NCBI RefSeq assembly: GCF_006152115.1
Contig: NZ_VDFU01000004.1
Coordinates: 124,001-188,000 of the forward strand
Source of the DNA: Rubellimicrobium rubrum
Lineage (GTDB): Bacteria; Pseudomonadota; Alphaproteobacteria; Rhodobacterales; Rhodobacteraceae
Reading direction: 5' to 3'
Length of the DNA: 64,000 nt
The position numbers and the translations under genes are program-made. Positions 42,531-62,276 of the stretch are shown here, in pieces. Below the pieces are notes generated by a model. It was not told the DNA's origin. It searched no databases and saw only the letters and a list, made by a program, of their open reading frames with translations. Position 1 is the first letter of the stretch; each line of letters opens with the position of its first letter.

Positions 42531-45038
42531 ATGCCACTACCCCTTGTGCTTGCTGGACCGATCGTACGACGCGTCGATTCGCGGTCGGCGACCTTCTGGA
42601 TCGCCCTGTCGGAAGCGGCTGTCGTCGAAGCCTGGGCATGGCGGGGCGAGCAGACGAGCACCGGCAACGGGACCGTCGAGTCCGGCGAGCCGTTCGCCGC
42701 GCACAGTCAGGTCACGGCGACCCGGGCCTGGGGCGACCGGCTGCACATCGCCACCGTCACGGCCCCGGTCGTCGAGGGGGCGGGCGCTCTCGATCCCGGG
42801 TCTCTGTACGCGTATGACATCACCGTCGCCGGCCATGGGGGCCTGAAGGAGCTTGGCCTGCTGGCCGATGCGTCGGGGAGCGGCGACGGGATCGATGCGG
42901 CGGCTCCCGCCCGGCTGGCGCTGGGCTACGTCCCAGACCGGCTTCCTACCTTCACCACGCCGGCCGCGTCGATTCCCGGTCTCCGGCTGGCCCATACCTC
43001 CTGCCGCAAGCCGCACGGGGCGGGCCCGGATGCGCTGGCCTGGCTGGACGACACCATCAGGGAGAACAGGACAAACCCCGACCAGCGGCCAGCGCAGCTG
43101 TTCCTGACGGGTGACCAGATCTACGCGGACGACGTGGCGGCCCCCCTGCTGGGGATGCTGCAGCCTCTCGCGGCCGAACTGCTGGGCTATGACGAGACCG
43201 TGCCACTGGCCGGGGGGACTCGGGTCACGGTCAAGGACCTGCCCCCGATGCGGCGGGGCCGCTTGGTGTTCGAGGTGGCGAAGTTCACCTCCACCTCGGC
43301 GTCCAGCCATCTCCTGGGGTTTGGTGAGTTCGCTGCCATGTACCTGGCCGCCTGGAGCCCACGGGTCTGGCGCCCCCTGCCCGACCGGGCGGCCCTCTTC
43401 GCCGAGGTGGCACCGTCCGACCGGGAAGCGCGCCACCTGACCGACTTCGAGACGGCCCATGGCAGCCGTGACGAATGGGAAGCCACGGATCGCGAACTCG
43501 AGTCCAAGAAAAAAGGAGGAACGGCCGAGGAGCGGGCCCGTGTGGAAGCCTTCGCCCTGACCGTGCCCAAGGTCGCCCGCGCGCTGGCCAATTGCGCCAC
43601 CTACATGATCTTCGATGACCACGAGATCACCGACGACTGGTACGTCAGCGCGCCATGGCGGACACGTGTCCTCACCTCTCCGCTGGGTCGCGCGGTATTG
43701 CGGAACGGGCTTCTGGCCTATGTGGCGTTCCAGGCGACCGGGAACGATCCCGGTCCTTGGGGCGATCCGCCGACGGTCACCGCCCCTCCGCCACCCACGC
43801 CCGAGCTCCAGCTGATCGAAAAGGCAGGAACGCTGCTCGCCGACCGGGAGGCGCCGACCGTCGCCCACGAGAACGAGGTCGACCCGCTCCTCGGGCTGGC
43901 GAGCCCCACGGAAGGGCCAGGGGTCCGCTTCCACTACACGGTGGACGGGCCACGTCACCGGGTCGTGGCGCTCGATACGCGGAGCCGGCGCACCTACGAC
44001 TCGGCGGTCCGCCACTCGCCGCCCAAGCTGCTGGGCTCGTCCCTGGACGCGATGCTTCCCAGCGGCCCCTTGCAGGATGGACGCGAGCTGCTGGTCGTGA
44101 TCTCGGCGGCGCCCATCCTGTTCCCGCGCATCTTCGACGTGCTGCTCCAGCCCGCGGCGGCGGCCATCTTCGACCTCAAGACACACATGGTCCGCACCGA
44201 GGCCTTCGATCCGGCCCGGCCGAAGCCCTCGATCGTCGGCAGCGAGCATTGGGATTTGGAAGGCTGGGGCGCCCATGAGTCGGGCTTCCACGAGATGCTG
44301 CGGCGGCTTGGGACCTATCCGCGCGTGGTCGTGCTCAGCGGCGACGTGCACTTCGCGTCGAGCCTGGCCTGCGATCTTTGGACCAAGGGCGACGACGTTG
44401 CCGACAGCCGTATCCTTCAATGCACCAGCAGCGCGGCCAAGAACCAGCCGGCGGCCGCGGAGCGCGCGGTGCTGCGGGGCCAGCGCGCGGCACAGCACCT
44501 GCTGCAGGGGCAGGCGGTCGAGCGGTTGGGCTGGGACGGCGATCATGGCGTGGTGCTGCCCGCCGGGGGCAGCATCCGGCCGGGACGACGCGGGCGGCTC
44601 CTGCGAAAGCCGGTGTTCGTTCCGGCGGTGGGGTGGCCTTCGGGCACCAGCTTGGACCCTGCCAAGCCCCCCGACCTCCGCTATCGCATCACGGTGCTTC
44701 GCGACGACAGGCCTGCGGCCGAACTGGGCATCGGCGCACCGAGGACACCGATGCTGCCCGCCTGGGATGCAGCCGACCCCATCGCGATGTATGCCCAGGT
44801 GGCCGGGGCCCATCAGCAGCTTCTGGAGGTCGGCAAGGATCCTATCCGGCTCCTGGTTTTCGCCAGCAATCTCGGCCTCGTGTCCTTTGCGCCCTCGCCC
44901 GCAGGCGGGGATGAGGTCGTCGCGACCCATGCGGTGATGTCGCCCGTCGGGGACGGAACCACCGGGGCGCCTTTCACTCATCACCGCGCTGATTTCGCGC
45001 GGCTGGCGGCTCCTCCCACTCTGACGGCGACGGGGTGA
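42531..45038 (+). CDS. PhoD-like metallophosphatase (alkaline phosphatase D-type)
   Basis: An 835-residue protein with the PhoD-type metal site. GDQIYADD lies at 194-201, FDDHEITDDW at 361-370 and LSGDVHFASS at 602-611, all motifs that hold the two metal ions in this hydrolase family. TSCRKPHGAGPDALAWLDDT precedes the first motif. An N-terminal beta domain (about 1-130) and a long C-terminal region (about 660-835) surround the catalytic part. It is roughly 300 residues longer than classic PhoD. No signal peptide or Tat motif was found, unlike secreted PhoD, so it is probably cytoplasmic or exported differently. First gene of the five-gene operon; the next gene starts 6 bases after its stop. 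Confidence 0.88.
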   Translation: MPLPLVLAGPIVRRVDSRSATFWIALSEAAVVEAWAWRGEQTSTGNGTVESGEPFAAHSQVTATRAWGDRLHIATVTAPVVEGAGALDPGSLYAYDITVAGHGGLKELGLLADASGSGDGIDAAAPARLALGYVPDRLPTFTTPAASIPGLRLAHTSCRKPHGAGPDALAWLDDTIRENRTNPDQRPAQLFLTGDQIYADDVAAPLLGMLQPLAAELLGYDETVPLAGGTRVTVKDLPPMRRGRLVFEVAKFTSTSASSHLLGFGEFAAMYLAAWSPRVWRPLPDRAALFAEVAPSDREARHLTDFETAHGSRDEWEATDRELESKKKGGTAEERARVEAFALTVPKVARALANCATYMIFDDHEITDDWYVSAPWRTRVLTSPLGRAVLRNGLLAYVAFQATGNDPGPWGDPPTVTAPPPPTPELQLIEKAGTLLADREAPTVAHENEVDPLLGLASPTEGPGVRFHYTVDGPRHRVVALDTRSRRTYDSAVRHSPPKLLGSSLDAMLPSGPLQDGRELLVVISAAPILFPRIFDVLLQPAAAAIFDLKTHMVRTEAFDPARPKPSIVGSEHWDLEGWGAHESGFHEMLRRLGTYPRVVVLSGDVHFASSLACDLWTKGDDVADSRILQCTSSAAKNQPAAAERAVLRGQRAAQHLLQGQAVERLGWDGDHGVVLPAGGSIRPGRRGRLLRKPVFVPAVGWPSGTSLDPAKPPDLRYRITVLRDDRPAAELGIGAPRTPMLPAWDAADPIAMYAQVAGAHQQLLEVGKDPIRLLVFASNLGLVSFAPSPAGGDEVVATHAVMSPVGDGTTGAPFTHHRADFARLAAPPTLTATG

Positions 45039-45044
45039 CCTGCA

Positions 45045-48000
45045 ATGGCCGAGGAAAAGAAACCCCCGAACGTGTTCCAGAAGACCGCCAAGTGGGCCGA
45101 GGAGGTGGTCGAGTGGATCGAGGCGACCTTCGGCGACCCAGCCTTGGCCACGCAGATCCTTGCGGATCTTGGGCTGGACGCCTCCGGGCCAGCGGCGCCC
45201 CAGCCAGCCTCGGACGCAAACAGGGCCAAAATCGATGAGTTCGTGGCCAAGCAGGACGTGGACGAAGCGGCCCTCATGGCGGTCGTCGCGGAGCTGAAGG
45301 CCCTTGTCCAGACCGGCCTGACCTTTGCCGATGCGGTAAAGACGGACAGCGTGGACGCCAACGACGTGCTCTGGCTCCTGTTCAAGGTATGGGTCGCGGA
45401 CTCCTTGCGTGCCCGCAATCCGGCAGCCTATGGCTTGTGCAGCCTGGCCGGCCTCCTCACCGAGGACGAGGAAGCATTGGGTGCGCTGGATCTGGCCCCG
45501 CTCGGCCGGTTCCTGCAGGGCGATGCAGCGGCCGACACCGAGGCGGTCATCAATCGCCTTTCCTTCCTGACCGGCACGATCCTGGTGATGCTGGATGCCA
45601 TGGTCGATGGGGCCGAGGGCACCATCGAGGCGGCCTATGGCTGGGACCCCGACCCATCCGATGACCCCGGCGCCGCCGCGGTGGCGGGCCGGGCGCTGAC
45701 CGTCAAGTTCCACATCCCGGAGGTGCCGGTCGCGCCGGCGCTCAGCCTCATCGGCGTCCCTCGGGCGCATGGCGGTCCTGGCGTCCTGCTGTCGCTGAGC
45801 GCGGCGCTCGAGTTCGCCAGCGTCATTGGCGCGACCAAGTATACCTTCAGCGCCGGAGCCCATGGGGCCTTCGCCGCCTATCTCGGGGCCCCCTCCCCTC
45901 GGCTCCTGAGCGGCGCGCGCCCGTCCTTTGCGCTGCGGACGGAGCCCTCGGCCGAGGCCGGAGGCAAGCCGGCGCTGGTCCTGGGCACCAGCGACGGCAG
46001 CCGGCTCGAGATCGGGGCGCTGACCTGGGGAATCGAAGCGGGGTCCGACTTCGCCGGGTTCCGCGCGACGGCCCGCAACGGCAAGCTCGTCATCGCGCTC
46101 GGCCAGGGGGACGGCTTCCTGAGCAGCCTCCCCGGCGGCACCATCGAGGCGCCGTTCGACCTGGGGCTGCTGGCCGATACAAGGGACGGCGTGCGCTTCG
46201 AGGGCGGGTCCGGGCTCAAGGTGAACCTGCCCGTCGCCGCATCGGTCTTCGGAGTGTTCCGGATCCAGTACGTCGAAATGGAACTCCTGCTGTCGGGCCG
46301 CACGGCGGTCGAGGTCCGGGGCGGTTTCTCACTCAAGCTCGGGCCGTTCACGGCGTCGGTGGACAAGCTGGGCCTTCGGGCCGATCTCGCCTCGCTCGCC
46401 GAGGGTGCGGATATCGGGAAGGTGGTGGAGTTCCTGCCGCCCAAGGGGATCGGGCTTCGGCTCGATGCAGGGGTGGTCAAGGGCGGGGGCTACCTGTTCG
46501 TCGATGCGGAGCGCGGCGAGTATGCCGGCGCATTGGAGCTGACCTTCGTCGGCGTCTTCAGCGTCAAGGCCATCTGCCTTCTCACCACCAAGCGGCCCGA
46601 CGGAAAGCCGGGCTGGGCGCTTCTGCTGCTGATCTTCGGGCAGTTCTCCGTCCACATCGCCTTCGGCATCTTCCTCAACGGTATCGGCGGCCTGATCGGG
46701 CTGCACCACCGCATCGACACCAAGGCGCTGACCGAGGGGATGCGGACCGGTGCATTGGACGACATCCTCTTTCCCAAGGACCCCGTGGGCGACGCGCCCC
46801 GCATCATCAATCGCTACCGCCAGCTGTTTCCTATCGAGCCGGACACCCTGATCCTGGGGCCGATGCTGGAGCTCGCCTTCAGCCAGCCACCCATCGTCTA
46901 CGTCCGGCTGGGTCTCCTGTTCGAGGTCCGCAACGCGCTGGGCGGCGACCGGCCTGTTGCGCTGAGCCAGGTGGTGCTGATCGGGCAACTCCTGGCGCAG
47001 ATGCCCCCCAAGGCGACGGGCGCTCCGGCGATCCTCAAGCTTCTCGTGGATGTCGTGGGCTTCTATGACGCGCAGGAGCAGTTCCTGATGATCCGGGCGC
47101 GTCTGCGCGACTCTTTTGTGGGCATCGAGGGCTTCGCCAAGCTGGACCTGTCGGGCGAGCTTCTGCTGGCCATGCAGTTCGGGGACGATCCGTCCTTCGT
47201 GCTCTCGGCCGGCGGCTTCCATCCGACGTTCAAGGATCTGCCCAAGGGGGTGCCGGCCGTCCTGGAGCGGTTGGCGGTGTCCTTCGGGATCGGCCCCATC
47301 CGGCTGCGGTGCGAGCAGTACTTCGCGATCACCAGCAATTCCGTGCAGGGCGGCATCAAGTGCCTGCTGGTTGCGAAGCTGGGGCCGGCCAGCATCGAAG
47401 GGCACCTCGCCTTCGACGCCATCCTTTACCTCACGCCACGGTTCCGGTTCATCGTCGGCCTGGACTTCGCCGTCGCGCTCAAGGCATTCGGGGAGTCCTT
47501 GTGCTCGGTCAGCGTCACCATGTCCCTCGAAGGCCCGGGCGAATGGCGCGCCAAGGGGCATTTCACCTTCTCGATCCTGTTCTGGGACGTCGATGTGGAC
47601 TTCGACGAGGGTTGGGGCAGCGCCCCCGCCATCGCAGAGGAAACGGTTCAGATCAAGCAGGCGCTCATCGACGAGCTGTCCGACTCCGCCCGCCTCCTGC
47701 CCGAGGCGCCGGTCGGCGGCTCCGGGCTCGTGACCCTGGCCGCCGTGGACGCGGGCCCGGTGCCTCTGGCCCATCCCCTGGGGCGCCTCACCATCCGGCA
47801 GCGGCTTGTTCCGTTCGAGGTCACGGTGGACCGGCTGGGCACGAAGCGATTGGACGGAGGTCCGGCCCTGTTCGCCGTGTCCGGCGTCACCGTGGGCAAA
47901 GAGGAGGCCAAGGCCATCGAGCCGGTCCTGGATCACTTCGCTCGCGGACAGTTCATGGAACTGAGCGAGCAGGAGCGCCTCGGCGGCAAGTCCTTCGAAC

Positions 48001-48413
48001 GCTTCCCTTGCGGGATCAGCGTCGGCACCAGCGCCTACAAGGTGGGCGGCGAGGGGCGAAGGGTAGAGGCGAGCTACGAGGAGAAGATCCTCGAGCCGCA
48101 GATCTTCATCGACCGCTTCCCCTGGTCGGTGCTCCGGCTGGAGAGGCGCGCCCTGTCCGACGTCCTGCTCGACACGCATGTCGCTCTTGGGGCGGCGGCC
48201 AAGTCATCGCGCGCCCTTCGCGGCGCCCTGGCGTCCGGCGGCCCCGGCGCGGCCAGCGTGACCAAGGACCTGCCGCTCACCCTCGTGGACCCGGACTCCC
48301 TGGCCGAGACGGCGCGGCTGAAGGCGGTGGTGGCTGGGTCGGACGCCGTGGCCCACGAGGTCGGCGGCGGGCGCATGCTGGTCATGGAGTCGTTTGAACT
48401 GGTGGGAGGCTGA
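45045..48413 (+). CDS. Large DUF6603-type protein
   Basis: A 1122-residue protein. The first 180 residues are helical; the rest is mainly beta, with many strand-like repeats. The C-terminal region fits my memory of DUF6603: AKGHFTFSILFWDVDVDFDE near residue 840, HPLGRLTIRQRLVPFEVTVD near 905, then FARGQFMELSEQERLGGKSF near 965. A hydrophobic stretch at about 525-555 (LLLLIFGQFSVHIAFGIFLN) could insert in a membrane or form a buried strand core. No signal peptide is visible. The family has no established function. It starts 6 bases after the phosphatase gene and its stop is one base before the next start. Confidence 0.85.
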   Translation: MAEEKKPPNVFQKTAKWAEEVVEWIEATFGDPALATQILADLGLDASGPAAPQPASDANRAKIDEFVAKQDVDEAALMAVVAELKALVQTGLTFADAVKTDSVDANDVLWLLFKVWVADSLRARNPAAYGLCSLAGLLTEDEEALGALDLAPLGRFLQGDAAADTEAVINRLSFLTGTILVMLDAMVDGAEGTIEAAYGWDPDPSDDPGAAAVAGRALTVKFHIPEVPVAPALSLIGVPRAHGGPGVLLSLSAALEFASVIGATKYTFSAGAHGAFAAYLGAPSPRLLSGARPSFALRTEPSAEAGGKPALVLGTSDGSRLEIGALTWGIEAGSDFAGFRATARNGKLVIALGQGDGFLSSLPGGTIEAPFDLGLLADTRDGVRFEGGSGLKVNLPVAASVFGVFRIQYVEMELLLSGRTAVEVRGGFSLKLGPFTASVDKLGLRADLASLAEGADIGKVVEFLPPKGIGLRLDAGVVKGGGYLFVDAERGEYAGALELTFVGVFSVKAICLLTTKRPDGKPGWALLLLIFGQFSVHIAFGIFLNGIGGLIGLHHRIDTKALTEGMRTGALDDILFPKDPVGDAPRIINRYRQLFPIEPDTLILGPMLELAFSQPPIVYVRLGLLFEVRNALGGDRPVALSQVVLIGQLLAQMPPKATGAPAILKLLVDVVGFYDAQEQFLMIRARLRDSFVGIEGFAKLDLSGELLLAMQFGDDPSFVLSAGGFHPTFKDLPKGVPAVLERLAVSFGIGPIRLRCEQYFAITSNSVQGGIKCLLVAKLGPASIEGHLAFDAILYLTPRFRFIVGLDFAVALKAFGESLCSVSVTMSLEGPGEWRAKGHFTFSILFWDVDVDFDEGWGSAPAIAEETVQIKQALIDELSDSARLLPEAPVGGSGLVTLAAVDAGPVPLAHPLGRLTIRQRLVPFEVTVDRLGTKRLDGGPALFAVSGVTVGKEEAKAIEPVLDHFARGQFMELSEQERLGGKSFERFPCGISVGTSAYKVGGEGRRVEASYEEKILEPQIFIDRFPWSVLRLERRALSDVLLDTHVALGAAAKSSRALRGALASGGPGAASVTKDLPLTLVDPDSLAETARLKAVVAGSDAVAHEVGGGRMLVMESFELVGG

Positions 48414-48414
48414 C

Positions 48415-51400
48415 ATGGCGACGGCATACCGCTTTCTGCCCTGGGCCCGGCGGGGCCTGGCTGCGGCGCTTCCCGAAACGACCGCAAGCTCCTCCCTGCC
48501 GCAGCACCCCGAGGTGGCTGTCAGGATGACGGTGACCGGCGCCGGAGACGCCGAGGCAAAGGTGATGCTCCATGGCCCCGGTGACGTGACCGGGATCGAG
48601 GGCGGCCAGATCCTCCGCACCTATCCCCGTCCCGACGTCACGGACGCCGAGCCCAACTTCCTGGCCGCCATCGACCTTGATGCGCCCGAACTGCCTTGGC
48701 TTTTCACGCCCCGCAGCGTCGCAGGATCCGGCCGGCTGCCGCCGTGGATCGTGCTGGTGGTCGTGGAACGGCGGACTGGCGTGACCGTCTCCTCACCCCG
48801 CGGAGCCCCCCTGCCGCAGTTGCGGATCGAGTCTGGCGCGGCTGCCGAGCTGCCCGACCTCACCGACTCCTGGGCCTGGGCTCATGTGCAGCTCGTCGAA
48901 GGTACAGGCGGCGCGAACTCGGCCGAGGCGGCCGCGGCGGCCCTTGCCGCGCAGCCCGATCGCAACGTGGCCCGGCTCGTCTGTCCGCGCCGCCTGGCCC
49001 CGAACCGCCGTTGGATCGCCGCGCTGGTTCCGGCCTTCGACGCTGGTCGGGTGCGGGGCCTCGGCGGGGTGCCCGCCCAGAACGCGCCGCTGGCGGATGC
49101 CTGGACGGCCGGAACGGACGCGGTGACCCTGCCGATGTTCTTCCATTGGGAATTCCAGACCGGACCCGAGGGCGATTTCGAAGCCTTGGCGCAGCGGCTC
49201 AAGCCCATGAAGGCGCTGACGACGGTGGGCCTGATGCCGATGCATGTGGGCGAGGCCGCGCCGCCGCTACGCGTGCCGGCCGACCAGGCCCGCATCCTGC
49301 CGATGGACGGCGCCCTGAGGGCTCCGGCGCAGTCGGACGGCCGGCTGGACCAGGTTCCCGATGCGCTGCGCGACGGGCTGAAGGAGGTTACCCGCACGCT
49401 GGCCGATGCGGCCGACGGAACCCTGGACGGCCAAACCCTTGAGGATGCGTCGCGCCAGCCGGTCGGGCCGCCCATCTACGCCTCGTCGCATGTCCAGCGG
49501 TGGCTGGTGCGGGACCGCGAAACCGCGCAGGACGCCGACTGGTTCCGCGAGCTGAACCTCGACCCTCGGGCCCGGGTCGCCGCCGGTCTTGGCGCCGAAT
49601 GCATCCGCGAAAACCAGGAAGACATCGTGAACGCCGCCTGGAAGCAGGTGGGCGACGTCCTGTCAGCCGAAGCGGCGCTGCAGCGTGCGGCCCTGTCGGA
49701 GCTGGTGTCGAAGTCTTACTTCCGACGCCACATCGAGCCCATGTCAGCCGACCGGCTGCTGCAGGTCGCGGCCCCAGTCGCGGCCCGGGTCCCCCTGGCC
49801 GGAGCGAGCGTGAAGATCTCGGTCCGCGCGTCATCGCTGCCCGACGCGGTGCTTGAAGGCGGGGTGCGCCGGGCCATGGCGCCTGCGGGCCGTGCCGTGG
49901 CCCGCGCGGCCCGCCGCCTAGGCGTCACGGGCCCCGATCTCCGCAGCGGGCTGACCATAGCGCTGGCCGAGACACGGGCCGAGGTGGACCCGACCCGCTT
50001 TGCCCGCCCGACTTTGACCGGAGTCGCCCCGGAAGCCCTGTCGGAACGCAATCTGGAGGCCATGGGCCTATCCATCGCCGTCGAGGCGGAAACCCTGACG
50101 CAGCTGACCGCAGCGGCGCGCGACCTGGCTGCCACGCCGGCCGTCGCCGATGCGGAGCGGCTGGAGCTTCGAGCAGAGGCCCGGACGAACGGCTTGCTGG
50201 GCCAGGCGCATGTCGAGGCCGCACGCAATCTCGCAGCGATGACAAAGACGTCCCTGATGGCGTCGCTGGATGCGGGCGCCACGCTGTCGGCCTCGGCCCT
50301 GTCGGCAGCGGCCTCCGCGACGCTGCTCGACGGCATCGTTGCCGGAGCGGCCACGGCCATGACAGAGAATCCGGCGGCCGGACCGGGCCTGGGGCTTGTC
50401 CTCGAGGGTCCGACCCTGAAGCAGGAGTCCGGCGCATTGGCGGTCGAGGGGGCGGCGGTCCGGGTGGGGGTTCTCGACCTCGATGCGGGCGGCACCCTCG
50501 TGGTGCGCACGCGGCCGGGCCGCCCGAACGAGCATCTGGCGGTTCTCGACCAGTCGCTGTCGGGCCAGGACCTTGGCGCCTTCCTGTCACGCCTGCCCCC
50601 CAACTCCGTCCGACGCTCCGACGCCAAAGCGCCCCCGACCCGGAGCGAGCTGCCGGAACTGCGGATGGGACGTGCGCTCGGTGGCGTGGCCCGGGTGCTG
50701 CGGTCGCCGTCTTCGGGAGCGGTCGGGAGCATGGGGGAGACGGTCACCCGCCGGGGTTCCGGGATCGACGTCCGCCCGGATCGCGGTGGCCCATTCCGCC
50801 CCGGCCGGGGCGGCCTGCCTAACGTGGTCGTCATTCCCGAGCCTCAGGTCACGATTCCAGCCGGCGGGGCTCCGGCGGGATCGCGTCCCACGGTCGTGAC
50901 CCCGCCGCTCCTTCGGGATCCGAGTGTGATGGCGCGGTTCGAGACGGCGCTCGCCCTGCAGATCGACTCCACCGTCCTTGCCATGCCGTCGCCAGTCGCA
51001 ACCCCGGTGCGGTTCGACCTGGGTGCGGCGACCGCGGCCCTGCGGGCCCATGTCGATCCCCGGATCGCGCAGCCGTTGCGGCGGGACGCGCGGATCGGGT
51101 TCGGCGGACGGACCCTGCCGGAGCTTCGGCCAAGGCCTGGGGCCTTCGCCGTGGACGGCTGGTGGGCGAGCCGGGCGCTTGACCGGGTCATGGCTTATCC
51201 GACCTTCCCGGTGGCGGCCTCGGACTATCTGGCCCGCTACGACCGCGACCGCTTCTGCCCCGGCATCGACACGGTCCCCCCCAACTCCATCACCCTGCTG
51301 GAGACGAACCCGCGCTTCATCGCGGCCTTCATGGCCGGTCTCAACCACGAGACCAACCGCGAGTTGCTGTGGCGCGGCTTTCCGACGGACAGCCGGGGCA

Positions 51401-51987: not shown

Positions 51988-52001
51988 CCGGGGGAACGCC
52001 C

Positions 52002-55000
52002 ATGCCTGACCTCGATCTGGATACCGTGGCAAGCGTCCGCAGGCAGGCGGATGCGGTGCAGGACGACCTGCAACAGACGCGAATGGCTCTCGCCATCGCA
52101 CGGCTCCGAGCGGCGGAGGCCAAGGCCATCGGGGACACGGCGACGGTGGCCGCGGCCGCGCAAGAAGCCGAGGCCCTCGACCAGCGCCGGGCCACCCTGA
52201 TCGCTAGCCTGCGCGAGAGTTCGGCGTCGGTGCGCGCCGCCTCGGAGGCACTCTTGGCGGCGGTGACGGCCGAGCAGGCCGTGGCCTCGCTGTCGGGCCG
52301 ACATCCGGTGCTCCTGCTGCCCGTGCGAATCGAGACGCGCTTCTTCGATGGGGGCGACACGCTGAAGGTCCGCATCTTTCCCGACCAGATCCACGTCACA
52401 GCCCACGATCCGGCCCTGACCGACACGGAGGTCGCGGGCCTGTCCTGGTATTGGGCTCATCGCTGGCCAAGCCCCGACGCGGGCACCGAAGCCGGCCTCG
52501 CCCTTGCCGAACAGGCGTGGCAAGGCCTGACCCAAAGGCTGAGCCCGGGCCGTGCGGCCTTCGTGGTGCGGACCTATCCGCCCGACAACCTGGGCAGCGG
52601 CGAGCCCGGACCTGCCTGGGGCAACCTCCCCCGGCGCGCGGTGGACGCGATGACTCCTGCGCGGGCCACCCTCCTGCCGGACCGCTGGTGCGTCATCGGG
52701 TACCGCGCGGACGGCGAGGGCCGCCACACGGAGATCTTCCGGCGCTGGGGAGCCGCCGTTCCCGACCGGCTGGCTGCGGGACCGAGCGCCGATCTTGGCC
52801 CCGCCGCGACGTCGCGCGGCCTGCCGGACGACCCAGAGCTGCTCTGGCTGCGCGACCCCGACGAAGCCGAGCGTCTGGGCATGATGGTGACCGTGCGCCA
52901 AGCCGATCTCCGGGCGGGCGCCGTCCTGAGGGAGGGCGTGGACCGCTTGGTCGTGGTGGGCGTCGACTGGACGCTGGGCCCCGAAGCCGCGGGTGCGGCG
53001 GTCGAGGCTCATCTGCGGGCCCATGCCAACGAGGGGCGGCTGGGGTTCGTGCCCCAGGGCGCGCCCACGAATTCGAACGGCTTGGCGCGCAGCGGGTTCA
53101 CGACGGATCCCGCGGTGGCGCAACGCGTGCTCGCCCCTCATCGGCCGCCAGCCGCAGCGCCGGACGCCGCGGGGCCGGTGACGGCCAAGACCCTGGGCCT
53201 GGGCGATGGCGCGCTGTCCCGCGTTCCCGGCGCCCACCTGCGCGAGCAGGGCTGGCAGGCCGCTCTTCTCGATGCCACCTGGTCGGCGATCGGCGGCTAC
53301 TACCTGACCGAGATGCTCGATCCGATCGCCGACGGGCCTGCCATCGAGACTTCGCTGCGGCGGCACGTCGTGGACCATCTGCGCGCCTCGGGTCCGGTGC
53401 CGACCCTGCGTGTCGGCGCGCAGCCATACGGCATGCTCCCGGTCATGCCGCGCGACCGCTTCGAACCCGACATCCGGCGACGGGCCCAGGCCGATGTCGC
53501 TCAGGTCGCCGCGGCCCTGCGGAGGCTGGCGGAGCCGCTGGTCGCGAAGGTTCCCCGCCTAAGTCATGTGCGCGGCCGCGGGGATGTGGACGACGTGCTG
53601 CTGGCGCTGCTCCAGCGCATGCCGGTCGCATGGTCACTCACGTTCCGCAAGCTGATCGGCCCGGTGGAACGCAAGGCCGTCAGCGTTGACTGGGACCGGA
53701 TCGCCGCGTTCCAGGGCAACGTGACGGCCATCCTCTTGGCCCAACTCGGCTGCCAGGGGATTCCCCACCTTTACGAGCTTACGCATGACAACCGTGACCA
53801 TCCGCTGGATGTGCCCCTGGTGCTGAAGCCCGATCCGACGCCCGAGGACGCGACCCGGCGCAGCACGGAGTACCTGGGCGAGATCCGCAGCCTGCTCGTC
53901 GAGGCCAATGGCACGGACATTCTCGACGCCCGCCAGAACTCGATCGCCCTGCTCGAAGCCTTCATCGCCTGCGCGGCGAGCCACGAGAACCGCAAGGCCG
54001 GCGGCAAGCTGGTCGAAGGCGCCGCCGGCGGGCTGGACCTGTCGCCCGCGTTCACGGAATTCCTGAGGCATCCCTCGGGGCGGATCCCCTACACGCTCCG
54101 GATCGAGGCCACGGCCGTCGCGCCCGCCGCAGCCAGCGCGACGATGGGCGTCCCCCTCACCCCGCGCGAGTTCGGCCAGATGATCATCCCGGCCGTGACA
54201 GGGGAGCGGACCATCACCCAGCACGTCGCGACCCAGTTCCTGGAGCGCCTTCGTCGGCCGGGATCGCTCGATGCGCCGGACGACCCGTTGCACTGGCTTT
54301 CTCGGTTCGACGCTGCTCTGGCTGCCTTGGAGACGGCACCGGCCGACGAGTTGGAATGGGCGTTCCGGGGCGTCCTCGACCTTTACTCGACGCGGCTGGA
54401 TGCGTGGATCACCTCTCTGGCGACGGCCCGGCTGGCCGAGCACCGGACGGCGGCTCCCGCAGGGCTTCACATCGGCGGCTGGGGGGTGGTCGAGGATCTT
54501 CGGCCCGATCTAGGGCGGGTGCCCGAAAGCCTGGGCTTCGTGCATGCGCCATCGCTGGGCCAGGCAGCGTCGGCGGCTGTGATGCGCAGCGCACGCCTGT
54601 CGCACCGCGACGCCGAGGGGCGTCTCTTCGACATCGACCTGACCTCCCGACGCGTACGGGAGGGGCTTCGGATCCTTGAAGGGGTCGCGGCGGGCCAGCG
54701 GCTTGCGGCTCTCCTAGGCTACCGGATCGAGCGCGGGCTTCAGGAGCGTGACCTCGCCCTGGCGCAATGGATCCTGCCGCTGCGCCAGCAGTGCCCGTTG
54801 CGAAGCGAGCGTCCGAACGACACCCCCGCGACGGAGCCCTTGGAGTCCGTCGCCGCCCGGGACGTTGTCGACGGGCTGGCCCTGCTCGCCCGGTGGGGGG
54901 CCGAGCGCGACGGGCTGCTTGTAGCGGCGGAGATCCCCTCCGGACCGGCGCGCGACGGCACCGCCGCCGTGCTGGACGACGTCGCCGGTCTGGCCGATGC

Positions 55001-56777
55001 GGTGAGCGACCTCCTCATGTCCGAGGCGGTCCATCAGGCGACGATGGGAAACCTGGAACGGTCGGGGGCTGCCTTGGCCGCGCACGACCGCCAGGAGCGC
55101 GCGCCCGACCCGGATTTTGTCCGCACGCCCCGGAGCGGTCCCGTGCTGACCCACCGGGCGGGCCTTTGGCTGCCCCGCGATGCGGCCGGGCCCGCCCCCG
55201 GCTGGCCGGCCGACCTGCGAAGTCTGGCCGAGCCTCGGCTGGACCGCTGGCTGGGGCGGATCCTCGGCGATCCGTCCCGCTGGACGGTGGAGGCCGCGCT
55301 GGTTCGTCCGTTGGATCCACAGTCCGAAGGCGTTCCGGCCGATGCAGAACCCGAGCGGGTCACCCTGCCGTCGCTCGCGATCCGCGACCTGGGCCTGTCG
55401 GCGCTATCGGTGGTGCTGGCGGCGCGGCGCCCCGGAGCCGCTCAGCCCAGCGAGTTGGAGGCAAGGCTGGCCCTTCTGTTCACCCGTGCCGCCACGCAGG
55501 ACGGGCTTGCCTTGGACGGCAACGTGCGGATCGACCTAGCGGCGGACAGCCTGGCCCCTCTCCTGGATCTGGCGAGCTGGGCCGGCGAAGTTGTCGGCAG
55601 CGCTCCTCTCGCTCCGGAGCACCTCGCTGCCGCCGACGATCTGGGACGTATGCCGAGCCCGGCTGCGGCCCCGGACATCGCCGAGGCCACCAGCCGGGCC
55701 CAGGCGGTGATCGAGCAGGTGAGCGGACTGGCCGACGCTGCCGAAGGGTCATTGTCCGCTTGGATCGCCAGCCCGGACGACCATCATCTTGGACCTCTGC
55801 TGGATGGGCTTCTAGCACTGGCCGAGGTCGAAGGTCCCGAGGCGTTGCCGGCCGGAGAGGCCGAAGGGTTGGCCGATCACGCTGCCCACATCCTTGCCCG
55901 GGTGCGCAGCCGCCTTGCGGCTGCGCACAACCTTCCTCTTCCTGCCATGCCCGCTCAAGTCCCCGGAGAGCCCGCACCCCCTAGCATCGGCGAGCCTGCG
56001 GAACTGGTTCGCGCGCGGGGGATCGTGCGGCTGCTCCTTGGCAACGGTCAGCCGTTCCTCCCGGTCCTTGCCCCAGCCCTGCCGGAGCGGCTCGCCGCAC
56101 CGGTCGCGGCGCGGGACGGGCTCTTGGGCGGGGATGGCACGGCGGTGGCGGCCTGGGTCCATCGTAGCGCGCTCGTACGGCCCCTGCTTGATCCGTTGGC
56201 CGCGCTCCTGGTCCATGCGGAGGCGGATGGCGCCCCCGTGTCCGAGGATCTGGCCGTCATCCAGTTGCCGCATGATCCCCAGGGCCGGTGGATCGCCCTG
56301 CCCTTCGGCGCTGCGGGTCCACCTCCCGAAGGCACGATGGGCCTTGTGCTGCATGCGCCGGATGGCTTTGCCCCAGCCAATGGAGGAGCTGGTCTCATCG
56401 TGGACTCGTGGACCGAGACCGTGCCGACAGCCAGCGAGACGACGGCGGTCACGTTCCACTATGACGCCCCCGGCGCGCGACCGCCGCAGGCGATGTTGCT
56501 GGCCGTCCATCCAGCGCTGTCGCCCGACCGCTGGGACTTCGACACCCTTGTGGGAAGCGTCAACGAAGCGGTCGATCTGGCGCGGCTGCGCACGCTCGGC
56601 TCTCGCGAACTCGCCGGGTTGTCGACCCTTGTCCCAGCGATCTTCCTGCCGGATGTCTACTCGCGCGACGTGCCCAGCCTGCGCTTCTTCGACCTTGCGA
56701 AGAACGCCAAGCTGGCCGCGGTGGGCGGCCTGATCGGCGACCATGTCCTTGGCCAGGCGGAGGTCCGGAATGGCTGA
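52002..56777 (+). CDS. Unknown very large protein (1591 aa), operon gene 4
   Basis: The largest gene in the window, unrecognised. Residues 8-95 form an Ala/Arg/Glu-rich coiled coil (DDLQQTRMALAIARLRAAEA). The rest is globular. A strand-rich block near residue 100-135 reads HPVLLLPVRIETRFFDG followed by LKVRIFPDQIHV. Further landmarks are RVGAQPYGMLPVMPRDRFEP near 470 and a Pro/Ala-rich stretch near 1300. No signal peptide or membrane helix was noted. The ATG at 52002 has GGGGGA 9 bases upstream, 14 bases after the preceding stop. The final 8 bases overlap the start of the next gene. Confidence 0.85.
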   Translation: MPDLDLDTVASVRRQADAVQDDLQQTRMALAIARLRAAEAKAIGDTATVAAAAQEAEALDQRRATLIASLRESSASVRAASEALLAAVTAEQAVASLSGRHPVLLLPVRIETRFFDGGDTLKVRIFPDQIHVTAHDPALTDTEVAGLSWYWAHRWPSPDAGTEAGLALAEQAWQGLTQRLSPGRAAFVVRTYPPDNLGSGEPGPAWGNLPRRAVDAMTPARATLLPDRWCVIGYRADGEGRHTEIFRRWGAAVPDRLAAGPSADLGPAATSRGLPDDPELLWLRDPDEAERLGMMVTVRQADLRAGAVLREGVDRLVVVGVDWTLGPEAAGAAVEAHLRAHANEGRLGFVPQGAPTNSNGLARSGFTTDPAVAQRVLAPHRPPAAAPDAAGPVTAKTLGLGDGALSRVPGAHLREQGWQAALLDATWSAIGGYYLTEMLDPIADGPAIETSLRRHVVDHLRASGPVPTLRVGAQPYGMLPVMPRDRFEPDIRRRAQADVAQVAAALRRLAEPLVAKVPRLSHVRGRGDVDDVLLALLQRMPVAWSLTFRKLIGPVERKAVSVDWDRIAAFQGNVTAILLAQLGCQGIPHLYELTHDNRDHPLDVPLVLKPDPTPEDATRRSTEYLGEIRSLLVEANGTDILDARQNSIALLEAFIACAASHENRKAGGKLVEGAAGGLDLSPAFTEFLRHPSGRIPYTLRIEATAVAPAAASATMGVPLTPREFGQMIIPAVTGERTITQHVATQFLERLRRPGSLDAPDDPLHWLSRFDAALAALETAPADELEWAFRGVLDLYSTRLDAWITSLATARLAEHRTAAPAGLHIGGWGVVEDLRPDLGRVPESLGFVHAPSLGQAASAAVMRSARLSHRDAEGRLFDIDLTSRRVREGLRILEGVAAGQRLAALLGYRIERGLQERDLALAQWILPLRQQCPLRSERPNDTPATEPLESVAARDVVDGLALLARWGAERDGLLVAAEIPSGPARDGTAAVLDDVAGLADAVSDLLMSEAVHQATMGNLERSGAALAAHDRQERAPDPDFVRTPRSGPVLTHRAGLWLPRDAAGPAPGWPADLRSLAEPRLDRWLGRILGDPSRWTVEAALVRPLDPQSEGVPADAEPERVTLPSLAIRDLGLSALSVVLAARRPGAAQPSELEARLALLFTRAATQDGLALDGNVRIDLAADSLAPLLDLASWAGEVVGSAPLAPEHLAAADDLGRMPSPAAAPDIAEATSRAQAVIEQVSGLADAAEGSLSAWIASPDDHHLGPLLDGLLALAEVEGPEALPAGEAEGLADHAAHILARVRSRLAAAHNLPLPAMPAQVPGEPAPPSIGEPAELVRARGIVRLLLGNGQPFLPVLAPALPERLAAPVAARDGLLGGDGTAVAAWVHRSALVRPLLDPLAALLVHAEADGAPVSEDLAVIQLPHDPQGRWIALPFGAAGPPPEGTMGLVLHAPDGFAPANGGAGLIVDSWTETVPTASETTAVTFHYDAPGARPPQAMLLAVHPALSPDRWDFDTLVGSVNEAVDLARLRTLGSRELAGLSTLVPAIFLPDVYSRDVPSLRFFDLAKNAKLAAVGGLIGDHVLGQAEVRNG

Positions 56778-58626
56778 GCGGAATTGGACGATCGCGGCGG
56801 AAGCGGCATCCCTGACCTTGAAGGAATGGCGCACGCTTCCCGTGATCCCCAGCTGGTCGCGGTTGGAGCCGATGACCCTGACCCGTGGAGACCTGGGGCC
56901 GGGGGCAGCCGCGCTGGTGGCCGACCCCTTGTGGATGATCGGTCGCCAGTGGCAGTTCGACGAGTTGCGGGGCGAAGATGCCGGCAGCCCGATCCAAGCC
57001 ACGGTCATTGGGGAGACCGCGCCGTTGACGCGTTTTCACGCCGGCCTGCCCGGGGCGGATCCGGCCGGGGCCACGGTGGACCTGCCCCGCCCCGGCACGC
57101 CCGGCTCCATTCCCTTGGAGGCAAGGGTCGAGGCGGAGCTGCCCGCCGTGCTGCCCCTGCGCCTGCGGATCCAGGCGGGGCTCCACCTCCTGCGCCTCCT
57201 CCGGGCGGGCGGCTTCGATGCGGTGGCCACGGCAGCGGCAGGCGCCTTTCCCGTTGCGCTGGAGCCGGTGCCCGCTCCGGGCGGCGGCGTCGTGTCGGAT
57301 CCTGTAGGCGAGGCGCGCGCACGTCTTGCCGGTGGCCGGGTTCCGGATGGCGCATTGGTCGCGGCCGCCCTGAATGCGCTCGATGACGGTGCAGGTGGGC
57401 TGTCGGGCTTGCCGCCGCCGCTTAAGGACGCGGCTGGGGAGGCAAGCGCAGAGGTCACGCGTATCCTGTCCATGTGGCTCATCTGGGCGCATAGTCTTCT
57501 CGCCAGCCCGAATGGTAAGTCGTGGAATCCGCATCGGCTGGAACATGCTTTCGCAGCGCAGGCTTCGCTGGGCGACGGCCCGGTGGTCGTTAAGGTGGAG
57601 GAATACACCGGCGGCACGCTCGACTGGTTCCATGGCGACCTTGCCGCTGGTCCGGATCTTGGGGCAGCGGCCGACCCGCCCGTGCCGGACATCATCCACG
57701 ATGTCACCTTGCCCGCGCCGGTCCGCTTTGCCGGAATGGCCTCGGACCGTCTGTTCGCCTTCGAGGACTCCCGGGTCTATCTGGGAGGCATCGAGGCGGG
57801 ACGCACCGACCTTGCCCGGCTCGCGGTGGTCGAGTTCTCGCTGGCCTATTCGGTCGATTGGTTCGTCGTTCCTTTAGCCTTGCCCTATGGCAGCGTAACG
57901 CGCCTCGATACCGTCCGCGTCGCCGACAGCTTTGGCGTGGTGATCGGCCTGCCGCCCTCGCGCGAGGCGACGTCGCCTGGCTGGACGGTGTTCCAGTCCA
58001 CCCCGGTCACCGACACCACACGGCTGGCGAACATGCTCCTGCTCGCGCCGACGGTGCCAAAGGTGCTGGAAGGTCCGCCCCTGGAGGAGGTGACCCTGTT
58101 CCGCGACGAGATGGCCAATCTCGCCTGGGGGGTCGAACGGGTGGTGCCCGGGCGATCGTCGGGGGAACCGGTGCCCCGCGCGCGCCAGGCGGCTACGGTG
58201 TCGCTGGTCCAGCCCGTTCCCGATGATCTCGGCGATGCCAGGGTCGTGTACCGTCTGATGACGCCGGTGCCGGAGAACTGGATGCCCTTCGTGGCGGTGC
58301 GGGACAGGCCGAACGACAAGACCGCCCATCATATCCTCGAGCGGCGGCCGATGCTCCGCTACCGTCCGGACCGCCAGGCCGAACTCGTGAATCCGCAAGG
58401 GACCATCCTGCTGACCGCTTCGGACGCCGATCCGGCCACCGACCGGCTCCGCATCGCCGAGGAGGAGGTCCCGCGCGAAGGCGTCGTGGTGGTCCGCGCC
58501 TTCCAGCAGGCTCGGACGGAGGACGGCGGCACGGTGCTCTGGATCGGCCGCCGTGTCCGCACCGGCCGAGGCGAGGGCGCAAGCGGGCTGCGCTTCGACA
58601 CCGCGCTGCCGCCCGGAAGCGTCTAG
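56770..58626 (+). CDS. Unknown protein (618 aa), operon gene 5
   Basis: An unrecognised globular protein. Near the start, ADPLWMIGRQWQFDELRGED followed by AGSP at about 51-74 looks like a conserved family motif. Other segments are WFVVPLALPYGSVTRLDTVR near 367 and PVPENWMPFVAVRDRPNDK near 500. There is no signal peptide, membrane segment or nucleotide-binding motif. The ATG at 56770 lies within the last 8 bases of the preceding gene, which indicates coupled translation and fixes the start. It ends the operon; the following ABC-transporter genes are on the other strand. Confidence 0.85.
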   Translation: MAERNWTIAAEAASLTLKEWRTLPVIPSWSRLEPMTLTRGDLGPGAAALVADPLWMIGRQWQFDELRGEDAGSPIQATVIGETAPLTRFHAGLPGADPAGATVDLPRPGTPGSIPLEARVEAELPAVLPLRLRIQAGLHLLRLLRAGGFDAVATAAAGAFPVALEPVPAPGGGVVSDPVGEARARLAGGRVPDGALVAAALNALDDGAGGLSGLPPPLKDAAGEASAEVTRILSMWLIWAHSLLASPNGKSWNPHRLEHAFAAQASLGDGPVVVKVEEYTGGTLDWFHGDLAAGPDLGAAADPPVPDIIHDVTLPAPVRFAGMASDRLFAFEDSRVYLGGIEAGRTDLARLAVVEFSLAYSVDWFVVPLALPYGSVTRLDTVRVADSFGVVIGLPPSREATSPGWTVFQSTPVTDTTRLANMLLLAPTVPKVLEGPPLEEVTLFRDEMANLAWGVERVVPGRSSGEPVPRARQAATVSLVQPVPDDLGDARVVYRLMTPVPENWMPFVAVRDRPNDKTAHHILERRPMLRYRPDRQAELVNPQGTILLTASDADPATDRLRIAEEEVPREGVVVVRAFQQARTEDGGTVLWIGRRVRTGRGEGASGLRFDTALPPGSV

Positions 58627-59689: not shown

Positions 59690-60762
59690 GACGTGGCCTG
59701 GGTCGCGATGCGGGACCAGACGATGCGGTAGCGAACCCCGACCAGCGCGGCGAGATAGAAGATCAACAAGAGGCCCTGCACGACCCGCACGGCTGCCACA
59801 GGCAGGTCGGCGGTGACCATGGCGCTGTCCCCGCCGATGGTGATCACCGCCATCAGAAAGGACGAGAGCACGATCCCCAGCGGGCGCAGACCTCCCAGAT
59901 AGGCCACCGTGATCGCGGTGAAGCCATAGCCCGAAGCGACCGACCTCTGGAGTTGCCCGATCGGGCCGGCCACTTCAGCGGCACCAGCAAGTCCCGCTGC
60001 AAGGCCGCCCAGGAGCAGAGACACCCAAACCGCCCGCCCCCCCCGGAACCCCGCATACGAGGCAGCTCGGGGCGCCAGTCCGCCGACCACGAGCTGATAG
60101 CCCAGGAAGCTCAGCTGCATCAGCACCCAGGCCGCAAGCGTCGCAGCAAGACCGAACAGGAGGGAGACGTTCACCCGCGTCCCTGGCAGCAGGGTTGGGA
60201 GCATGGCCTCGTATTGGAACATGACGCTTTGGGGAAAGTTGAAACCCGCTGGATCCTTCCATGGTCCTAGCAGCAAGTAGTTCAGCAACTGGCTCGCCAC
60301 GAGGCTCAGCATCAGCGTGACCAGGATCTCGCTTGCGTTGAGCCAAGTCCGCCAGAGTGCCGCGATCGAGGCCCACAGCGCCCCGCCCAAGGCACCCAGA
60401 ACCATCATGGCAGGCCAGAGCCAGGGCGAGGTCGAGGTCGGGAGGTAGACCGGTAGGGCCGAAGCGCAGATGGCACCCAGGATCAGCTGCCCCTCGGCCC
60501 CTATGTTGAACACCTTGGCCCGGAAGCCGATGGCCAGCCCCTGTGCAATGAGCAGGAGCGGCCCCGTTTTCAGGAGAACCTCGGAGAAGCTGTACCAGGA
60601 CAGGAACGGCTCGATAAACAGCGCATGGAGCGCCGCTCCCGACGGCTTACCAAGCAGGGCGAAGAGCACCAGGCTGACCACCACAGTCAGCGCCAAGGCC
60701 AAGAAGGGCGCAAGGACCGAAGCCCGGACGGACGCATGTTCGCGCGGAACGAACTCAGGCAT
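59686..60762 (-). CDS. BMP-type nucleoside/purine ABC transporter permease 1
   Basis: A 358-residue permease. The N-terminus has one helix (LAPFLALALTVVVSLVLFAL), then the family core: SFSEVLLKTGPLLLIAQGLA, GFRAKVFNIGAEGQLILGAI, and WNASEILVTL-like TWLNASEILVTLMLSLVASQ. The start ATG at 60762 (MPEFVPREH) lies 8 bases inside the end of the ATPase gene; a Met seven codons earlier is possible but would lengthen the overlap. Forms a heterodimeric channel with permease 2. Confidence 0.92.
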   Translation of the reverse strand: MPEFVPREHASVRASVLAPFLALALTVVVSLVLFALLGKPSGAALHALFIEPFLSWYSFSEVLLKTGPLLLIAQGLAIGFRAKVFNIGAEGQLILGAICASALPVYLPTSTSPWLWPAMMVLGALGGALWASIAALWRTWLNASEILVTLMLSLVASQLLNYLLLGPWKDPAGFNFPQSVMFQYEAMLPTLLPGTRVNVSLLFGLAATLAAWVLMQLSFLGYQLVVGGLAPRAASYAGFRGGRAVWVSLLLGGLAAGLAGAAEVAGPIGQLQRSVASGYGFTAITVAYLGGLRPLGIVLSSFLMAVITIGGDSAMVTADLPVAAVRVVQGLLLIFYLAALVGVRYRIVWSRIATQATS

Positions 60763-62275: not shown

Positions 62276-62276
62276 G

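What the first reader, a model, noticed from the sequence alone, without database searches (positions are those of the whole stretch)
42531..58626. Five-gene, 16-kb operon of giant unrecognised proteins with a PhoD-like phosphatase and a DUF6603-type protein
Five same-strand genes with junctions of +6, +1, +14 and -8 bp encode 835, 1122, 1190, 1591 and 618 residues. Only the first has a clear enzymatic signature (GDQIYADD, FDDHEITDDW, LSGDVHFASS). The second fits DUF6603 from memory, and the rest are unrecognised. None has a visible signal peptide or obvious transporter or regulator partner. The size and tight coupling point to one machine or particle, such as a cytosolic or exported assembly with a hydrolase. 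This function is inference; the coupling is seen directly.
Basis: partly seen in the sequence, partly recalled or inferred. Interest (0 to 1): 0.88.

Follow-up and report, generated by a model that had tools for sequence, protein, structure and literature searches.

The report
Swappable enzyme carrier gene system
Bacteria and salt-loving archaea share a set of four giant genes that appears to act as a common chassis for interchangeable enzymes, each arriving with its own matching adaptor half.

Summary
P2 is DUF6603; P1 is PhoD-like by motif but below Pfam's cut-off; P3-P5 match no family, and P5 no known fold. The coupling is real. A scan with P4 returned 70 loci from many phyla, including haloarchaea; 51 hold all of P2-P5 (50 in this order), and in 17 of the other 19 the held sequence ends.

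The unexpected part is modularity. The gene before P2 is an interchangeable enzyme (PhoD-like, subtilase, trypsin-like, M64, phospholipase D, tyrosinase and others), and P2's N-terminal ~450 residues change with it; P2's C-half and P3-P5 follow the organism. Sister Nitrospira loci with ~80% identical chassis carry unrelated enzymes and P2 N-halves. Seven Nitrospirota loci stack two [enzyme][P2] units before one P3-P4-P5, their P2 C-halves 94-100% and N-halves 21-26% identical within a genome. Subtilases and trypsin-like proteases share a ~130-residue domain that P2's N-half tracks.

I conclude: an adaptor-coded enzyme carrier (cassette logic well supported, binding inferred). Extracellular delivery is plausible, not shown. 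Four searches of the held papers found no description. The window's copy looks acquired from Actinomycetota.

The parts
42531..45038 (+). P1, interchangeable enzyme slot; here a PhoD-like phosphoesterase, 835 aa
   Evidence: Motifs GDQIYADD / DDHEITDD / LSGDVH; Pfam PhoD 24.6 bits, below cut-off 27; homologue in Streptomyces klenkii L014 beside the same P2-P5
45045..48413 (+). P2, DUF6603 protein, 1122 aa: proposed adaptor between enzyme and chassis
   Evidence: PF20248 333.6 bits at residues 402-976; AlphaFold model mean pLDDT 77.5, pTM 0.53, long antiparallel beta meander
45045..46394 (+). P2 N-terminal part (about residues 1-450): enzyme-specific half by comparison with relatives
   Evidence: Mosaic breakpoint in relatives at about residues 450-476 of P2; similarity tracks enzyme class
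46395..48410 (+). P2 C-terminal part (about residue 451 on, most of DUF6603): constant, chassis-side half
   Evidence: Follows lineage, and 94-100% identical between tandem copies within a genome in Nitrospirota relatives
42531..46394 (+). inferred exchangeable cassette: P1 plus P2 N-half
   Evidence: By comparison with L041/L043 only: DNA homology absent over 655-4496, 79% from 4497 on
48415..51987 (+). P3, chassis protein, 1190 aa; conserved ends, variable middle
   Evidence: No family; conserved N and C regions; FG-GAP repeats in two relatives
52002..56777 (+). P4, chassis protein, 1591 aa
   Evidence: No family; query of the scan that gave 70 loci
56770..58626 (+). P5, chassis protein, 618 aa
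   Evidence: No Pfam/NCBIfam/PADLOC family; AlphaFold mean pLDDT 78.8, pTM 0.76; no PDB or viral fold match at E <= 0.001

Best explanation
The operon encodes a modular enzyme carrier. P3, P4 and P5 with the constant C-terminal half of P2 form a common chassis. P1 is the cargo enzyme, here a PhoD-like metallophosphoesterase. P2 is the adaptor: its N-terminal ~450 residues recognise the cognate enzyme, and its DUF6603 C-terminal half, an amphipathic beta meander, plugs into the chassis. [Enzyme + P2 N-half] is exchanged between lineages as a cassette, and some genomes feed two enzyme-adaptor pairs into one chassis. Shown by comparison: synteny, cassette exchange, co-variation of enzyme and P2 N-half, tandem units, a domain shared by unrelated proteases. 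Inferred: physical binding, assembly of one complex in the cytosol (no signal peptides seen), and action outside the cell on surfaces or other cells (receptor- or surface-type domains in some chassis proteins).
For: Synteny: P2-P5 together in 51 of 70 loci found with P4, 50 in order; 17 of the other 19 end at the edge of held sequence; also in 9 of 10 plasmid regions examined. P2-P3 fused in one 2846-aa ORF. Distances of P2-P5 correlate over 49 rows, window included: Mantel r 0.92-0.975, 0 of 999 permutations each; Spearman 0.61-0.84. Slot enzymes differ. Sister loci L041/L043: P3 84%, P4 78%, P5 82% identical, enzymes PLD vs PhoD without a BLAST hit, P2 14-15% in each of the first four 100-residue windows, 36% in the fifth, then 75-94%. 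Best P2 N-half match has the same enzyme class in 16 of 18 representatives (permutation mean 6.6, 0 of 5000); the core in 10 of 18 (580 of 5000). Tandem [enzyme][P2] units in 7 of 14 Nitrospirota genomes searched: N-parts 21-26%, C-parts 94-100% identical within a genome. Subtilases and trypsin-like proteases share a ~130-aa domain, and P2 N-halves of L033 and L007 rank the seven other loci with this domain 1-7, and 1-6 plus 9, of 49. P2 N-part at least 469 residues in 42 of 42 loci with a slot gene; shorter in 12 of 19 without, one of these by a split frame.
Against: No binding or secretion data. P2's model has pTM 0.53 and no real fold match (TM by query length at most 0.16 among 50 listed). 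No immunity, lysis or protein-export gene was recognised among the recurring neighbours scanned; an AcrB-type efflux gene lies near 7 loci (one copy scanned). Two loci lack genes with no sequence end to blame (L028 no P2, L072 no P2/P3), one is rearranged (L060), and plasmid region L009 has P5 alone. In pairs with distant cores (score under 0.4) same-class P2 N-halves are, on the median, slightly less alike than different-class ones (0.031 vs 0.050 and 0.055 vs 0.074); the PhoD class is heterogeneous. Eight of 15 PhoD-slot proteins lack the DDHE motif (some are cut), so not all need be active. Class labels were set by me, and c3 was merged into PhoD after seeing the data, on the evidence. The exchange itself was seen in Nitrospira; for the window it is by homology. 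Surface-type domains were seen in four relatives' proteins, not in the window. In two of the seven arrays the P2 repeat is only 91% and 87% identical in DNA.
Confidence: 0.62

Rival explanations
1. A cytosolic enzyme scaffold or storage body: the same adaptor-chassis logic, but it never leaves the cell and serves to cage or regulate enzymes.
For: No signal peptides by hydropathy; no protein-secretion partner recognised among the recurring neighbours scanned; a tyrosinase in the slot.
Against: Chassis proteins of relatives carry LTD, PA14, F5/8-type (below cut-off) and FG-GAP domains, and the slot enzymes are of kinds that are often extracellular (recalled). No shell-type family or fold was found.
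Confidence: 0.22
2. A polymorphic-toxin-like weapon in which P2's N-half is the cognate inhibitor (immunity) of the slot enzyme, fused to the carrier.
For: Enzyme and P2 N-half are exchanged together and stay paired, as toxin and immunity do; Het-C and phospholipase D slots; tandem units resemble effector cassettes.
Against: Tyrosinase and PhoD are not typical toxins (recalled); proteases of two kinds share a separate domain which P2 N-half tracks, which favours docking over active-site inhibition; no separate immunity gene seen in the arrays.
Confidence: 0.2
3. A divergent known delivery machine: insecticidal Tc toxin, type VI or contractile injection system, or phage tail.
For: Giant subunits without signal peptides, interchangeable enzyme, receptor-type insertions; one below-cut-off TcdB_toxin_midN match in L056 P3 (E 0.0074).
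Against: No Pfam, NCBIfam or PHROG hit to sheath, tube, baseplate, Rhs or Tc families in P1-P5; P5 has no fold match in PDB or the viral set; P4 relatives not found in viral contigs with the patterns tried.
Confidence: 0.06
4. Unrelated large genes that merely lie together.
For: Only L009, where P5 stands alone.
Confidence: 0.01

Closest known systems
Type VI secretion VgrG-adaptor-effector units (DUF4123 and others; PMC8668125 and PMC6684961, start of abstracts seen in the listing; the rest recalled)
   Same: Different effectors, each with a cognate adaptor, loaded on one carrier; effector and adaptor genes adjacent.
   Different: No T6SS component recognised here; adaptor and chassis-plug are one protein; also in Gram-positives and archaea.
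Insecticidal Tc (ABC) toxins (PMC6868009, PMC10847048, start of abstracts seen in the listing; the rest recalled)
   Same: Very large subunits, a non-conserved enzyme, receptor-binding parts.
   Different: No sequence relation above cut-off; the enzyme is a separate gene paired with an adaptor half, not the C-terminus of TcC.
Polymorphic toxin systems (PMC3482391, start of abstract seen in the listing; the rest recalled)
   Same: Exchange of catalytic modules by recombination on a constant carrier; tandem cassettes.
   Different: The variable region is an upstream gene plus the N-half of the next gene; no immunity gene recognised; that the enzymes are toxins is not shown.
PF20248 / DUF6603
   Same: P2 is a clear member.
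   Different: Pfam gives the family no function; the mosaic N-half lies mostly outside the Pfam domain.

Membership tests
DUF6603 (PF20248) | profile score above cut-off 27 bits | tested here: met
   333.6 bits
PhoD-like phosphatase (PF09423) | profile score above cut-off 27 bits | tested here: not met
   24.6 bits
PhoD-like phosphatase (PF09423) | metal-site motifs GDxxY, DDHE, SGDxH (recalled as characteristic) | tested here: met
   all three in P1; not in all slot relatives: 12, 7 and 12 of 15 have the three motifs as searched
PhoD-like phosphatase (PF09423) | phosphodi/monoesterase activity | not testable with these tools
   needs an assay
Type VI / contractile injection system | sheath, tube, baseplate or VgrG family in the operon | tested here: not met
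   no hit for P1-P5
Tc toxin | TcA/TcB/TcC (SpvB, TcdB, Rhs) families above cut-off | tested here: not met
   none in P1-P5; one below-cut-off match in a relative's P3
Polymorphic toxin system | variable toxin module on a constant carrier, exchanged by recombination | tested here: inconclusive
   exchange of a catalytic module is seen in Nitrospira relatives; that the module is a toxin is not shown
Polymorphic toxin system | dedicated immunity gene next to the toxin | tested here: inconclusive
   no separate gene between enzyme and P2 in the arrays; P2 N-half could play the part
Known anti-phage defence system | PADLOC model | tested here: not met
   no hit

The most novel reading that the evidence does not exclude
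A new class of enzyme-delivery particle, shared by Bacteria and haloarchaea and unrelated to phage tails or Tc toxins, whose cargo is coded by exchangeable [enzyme + adaptor-half] cassettes and whose DUF6603 half, an amphipathic beta meander, either inserts into target membranes or carries lipid; one chassis can load several enzymes.
Probability: 0.35. Interest if true: 0.95.

Novelty: categorically new. Interest (0 to 1): 0.83.

Why it matters
Four giant protein families, three of them without a profile in Pfam, NCBIfam or PADLOC, turn out to be one conserved system: its marker P5 is in 24 of 29 sampled genomes of the Nitrospira defluvii genus, and the set is scattered over many phyla and haloarchaea. 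The cassette logic says which half of P2 to test against which enzyme, so a question with no handle (what are these hypothetical giants for?) becomes a direct binding experiment. If it is a delivery system, its enzyme slot is naturally interchangeable.

Tried and rejected
Known families: Pfam, NCBIfam, PHROGs, PADLOC and PDB sequences gave nothing significant for P3-P5. P3, P4 and P5 are not detectably related to one another (hhalign). Viral contigs gave no P4 relative with the patterns tried. P5's fold: no PDB or viral match at E <= 0.001. P2's fold: weak resemblance to outer-membrane proteins, LptD, SlpA and ApoB100 (best E 2e-5, TM by query length 0.15); I take only 'long amphipathic beta meander' from it. 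The alternation was tested on 22 strands that I picked from the DSSP list (1.46 vs 0.61 in shuffles, 0 of 1000) and would also fit a soluble beta sheet.

First I thought DUF6603 often stands alone, because in a sample of the order of Streptomyces klenkii 33 of 197 genomes have it and only 9 have P5. I then read 12 regions around DUF6603 places without P5 beside them: all 12 share one ~1200-aa family; in 5 I aligned a P3-like neighbour (hhalign to our P3 92.8%, E 4e-7); a last-gene family recurs in 7. Their ~1200-aa protein is not detectably related to our P3, P4 or P5; their last protein was not compared by profile. So DUF6603 serves at least two types of chassis.

The c3 class of slot protein proved to be the cut-off end of PhoD fusions (two read in full). 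Cross-class hhalign of slot proteins found a shared domain only between the subtilase and trypsin-like groups, besides PhoD-c3. Of the recurring or adjacent downstream genes scanned with Pfam some are ordinary (dehydrogenase, regulator, efflux pump, glycosyltransferase), several have no family. Promoter and terminator scans found nothing above chance.
Full report
OBSERVATION. P2 is DUF6603 (PF20248, 333.6 bits). P1 carries the three PhoD-type motifs, but its Pfam score (24.6) is below the cut-off of 27. P3, P4 and P5 have no match in Pfam, NCBIfam or PADLOC, only a weak PHROG for P5, and none of significance among PDB sequences. The genome holds one DUF6603 place.

CONSERVED SYNTENY. P5 relatives were found on 14 plasmid records; I examined 10 regions. 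Nine hold P2-P5 (Streptomyces, Rhizobium, Paraburkholderia, Nocardia, haloarchaea; in L005 and L012 P3 and P4 are split over several frames), and one (L009, Streptomyces anthocyanicus) has P5 alone. A profile of P4 then fetched 70 loci from one genome per species: Actinomycetota, Nitrospirota, Pseudomonadota, Bacteroidota, Acidobacteriota, Bacillota, haloarchaea and others. 51 of 70 hold P2, P3, P4 and P5, 50 of them in this order (the fused frame of L067 counted as in order). Of the other 19, 17 end at the edge of held sequence; L028 lacks P2 and L072 lacks P2 and P3 without that excuse. L060 has the four genes in another order. In Micromonospora fulviviridis (L067) P2 and P3 are one open frame of 2846 aa. 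Pairwise distances of P2, P3, P4 and P5 correlate over the 49 rows with all four, window included (Mantel r 0.917-0.975, 0 of 999 permutations each; Spearman 0.61-0.84; near relatives raise these).

SAMPLES. In a sample of the order of Streptomyces klenkii, DUF6603 is in 33 of 197 genomes and P5 in 9 of 197; all 9 are among the 33, and in 8 of the 9 a P5 place starts about 9-13 kb from a DUF6603 place on one contig (the ninth, G374, has them on different contigs). In the genus of Nitrospira defluvii, P5 is in 24 of 29 genomes. In a sample of the window's own phylum P5 was found in 1 of 299, the window's own genome.

THE FIRST GENE IS A SLOT. The gene directly before P2 differs. Among the 70 loci I assign 33: PhoD-like 12, PhoD fusions cut at the locus edge 4 (two read in full), subtilase S8 6, M64 peptidase 4, phospholipase D 2, DUF2515 2, and one each of trypsin-like, Het-C and tyrosinase. 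Four have an unassigned gene there (L036, L060, L064, L076). In the other 33 the sequence ends, or I saw or assigned no same-strand neighbour. Pfam was run on representatives of the non-PhoD classes; the others are by BLAST clusters, and PhoD relatives by their match to P1. Of 15 PhoD-slot proteins (window included, two cut), 12, 7 and 12 have the three motifs as I searched them, so some may be altered or inactive. Metallo-beta-lactamase proteins lie in the slot of two of the second-type operons.

P2 IS A MOSAIC. In Nitrospira the sister loci L041 and L043 have P3 84%, P4 78% and P5 82% identical, but phospholipase D against PhoD in the slot, with no BLAST similarity. Their P2 proteins are 14-15% identical in each of the first four 100-residue windows, 36% in the fifth, and 75-94% beyond. 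At DNA level homology is found at 298-654, absent at 655-4496, and 79% from 4497 to beyond P5. The break maps to residues about 450-476 of the window's P2.

P2'S N-HALF FOLLOWS THE ENZYME ACROSS PHYLA. The nearest N-half of Nitrospira L041 (PLD) is acidobacterial L020 (PLD); that of N. defluvii (M64) is, after its own genus, betaproteobacterial Propionivibrio (M64). Over 22 representatives, 18 of which have a partner of the same class, the best N-half match has the same class in 16 (permutation mean 6.6, 0 of 5000); the best core match in 10 (mean 6.6, 580 of 5000). With the finer labels used first it was 14 of 17 (0 of 5000) against 8 of 17 (75 of 5000). In pairs with close cores (score 0.6 or more) same-class N-halves score 0.59 and 0.74 on the median and no different-class pair exceeds 0.104. 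Against this reading, in pairs whose cores are far apart (under 0.4) same-class N-halves are slightly less alike on the median than different-class ones; the PhoD class is heterogeneous. Within 12 PhoD loci, enzyme and N-half similarity correlate given the core (partial rank correlation 0.69 over 66 pairs).

A LIKELY DOCKING DOMAIN. Six subtilases of Nitrospirota and three slot proteins elsewhere (L033, and two in L007) share a ~130-residue domain, C-terminal in eight and internal in one (the first gene of L007). It was found by BLAST, supported by profile comparison (97.7%), and a profile built from these nine matched only them among the ORFs held. One L007 protein has Trypsin_2 above cut-off, L033 has Nal1_C just above cut-off (a trypsin-like fold as I recall), and the second L007 protein has no Pfam family. 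By P2 N-half, L033 (Williamsia) ranks the seven other loci with this domain 1-7 of 49, and L007 (Paraburkholderia) ranks its seven 1-6 and 9; by the core these ranks are 7-48 and 9-25. So P2's N-half tracks the shared domain rather than the catalytic kind. I infer that it binds it.

N-HALF PRESENT WHERE AN ENZYME IS PRESENT. In 42 of 42 loci with a slot gene (five of unassigned class; window included; some ORF starts are overlong) the part of P2 before the core is at least 469 residues. Of 19 without one (4 more near a sequence end were dropped), 12 have 434 or fewer (Fisher p 2.9e-8). In one of the 12 (L049) P2 is split over two frames; moving it gives 1.8e-7, and leaving out the five unassigned 5e-7. 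Related loci are not independent. Several of the other 7 have candidate genes nearby that I did not count.

TANDEM UNITS. In 7 of 14 Nitrospirota genomes searched for DUF6603, [enzyme][P2][enzyme][P2] stands before a single P3-P4-P5: PLD then M64 in N. defluvii, PLD then S8 in five, PhoD then S8 in one. Within a genome the two P2 N-parts are 21-26% identical and the C-parts 94-100%; distal and single (PLD) C-parts between genomes are 73-94%. The repeat is about 1.6-1.8 kb: 5 mismatches in 1604 bases in the finished N. defluvii genome (match cut by the end of the locus), 99.5-99.9% in three others, 96.7% in one, and only 91.0% and 86.8% in the last two. In at least five of seven this looks like recent exchange or gene conversion that keeps the chassis half common; in the last two no clear excess is seen.

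STRUCTURE. P5 gave a fair model (mean pLDDT 78.8, pTM 0.76; the N-terminal 70 residues poor) with no match in PDB or viral structures at E <= 0.001. P2 (77.5, 0.53) is a helical N-terminus followed by a long antiparallel beta meander; 22 strands that I picked alternate hydrophobic and polar residues far above shuffles. Foldseek lists outer-membrane proteins, LptD and ApoB100 with low TM scores. P3 and P4 were not folded.

WHERE IT MIGHT ACT. No signal peptide is apparent by hydropathy, but 47 of 53 P2 relatives, 21 of 62 P4, 9 of 64 P3 and 6 of 59 P5 have a 19-residue stretch at 1.6 or more, as have some slot proteins (2.6 in L041); I take those in P2 for beta strands, yet membrane segments are not excluded. 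Relatives insert LTD domains (Salinigranum P5), PA14 and a below-cut-off F5/8C match (Caulobacter P5), and FG-GAP or propeller repeats (Streptomyces and Humibacillus P3) into chassis proteins (4 of 6 proteins scanned); these are mostly surface or receptor-type domains (recalled). That suggests action outside the cell, by release of an assembled complex; it remains inference. An AcrB-type efflux gene recurs near seven loci, six Nitrospirota and L060 (Pfam on one copy); I did not follow it up.

ORIGIN OF THE WINDOW COPY. In the P5 tree (quick method) the window joins a Sporichthyaceae MAG contig (71% identical; an 8-kb contig that may be misbinned) and the isolate Streptomyces klenkii, both forks starred at 100. 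A nearby ABC-transporter gene (60755-62362) is 66-69% identical to Rhizobium and Agrobacterium in the 12 best plasmid records, and the operon's G+C is 67-72% against 64-70% around it. So the host looks alphaproteobacterial and the operon acquired from Actinomycetota; the host's name was not determined.

LITERATURE. No held paper contains DUF6603 or PF20248. Two broader searches for the combination of parts found none. Of the comparators I saw only listings with the start of abstracts.

VERDICT. The coupling and the cassette logic are strongly supported. Adaptor binding is the natural reading, and action outside the cell the likeliest but unproven purpose. No component was matched to a described system by the searches above, hence 'categorically new'; the working principle resembles effector-adaptor loading.

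Noticed in passing
L083-L094 (for example L090:4174-14815): A second type of DUF6603 operon in relatives of Streptomyces klenkii: DUF6603, a P3-like protein (aligned in 5 of 12), a ~1200-aa protein in all 12 regions, and a last protein (family in 7 regions) with LTVNG-like repeats that remind of tail fibres; metallo-beta-lactamase in the slot of two.
   Followed up: partly
L028:8526-9647, L039:8985-9794 and 17 others: In 19 loci, mostly Nitrospira, a gene of about 270-374 aa lies between P3 and P4; only weak coiled-coil-type Pfam hits for the one scanned.
   Followed up: partly
L096:6085-10436 (Nitrospira sp. UBC2): A PhoD-P2 unit with a shortened P2 lies far from the P3-P4-P5 locus (L028), which has no P2.
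   Followed up: no
L067:1398-9938: P2 and P3 fused in one open frame of 2846 aa.
   Followed up: partly
L009:19386-21191 (Streptomyces anthocyanicus plasmid): P5 alone, without P2-P4 within 20 kb.
   Followed up: no
L051:4029-17007; L049:2557-6251: P2 (and in L051 also P4 and P5) spread over several frames: decayed copies or sequencing errors.
   Followed up: no
L028:20424-23621 and six other loci: An AcrB-type efflux gene recurs near seven loci (six Nitrospirota, and L060); in five of them a second shared gene of about 400 aa precedes it.
   Followed up: no
L008:20984-24694; L017/L073/L077/L081 downstream of P5: In some Actinomycetota without an upstream enzyme, a subtilase (L008) or a recurring unassigned protein follows P5, so the slot may also lie downstream.
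   Followed up: no
G551, G537: Some Nitrospira genomes hold two full P5 copies, one of them divergent.
   Followed up: no
L005:23756-37011 (Rhizobium lusitanum plasmid p_3): Cyanovirin-N, GH25 lysozyme and glucosaminidase genes follow the operon.
   Followed up: no
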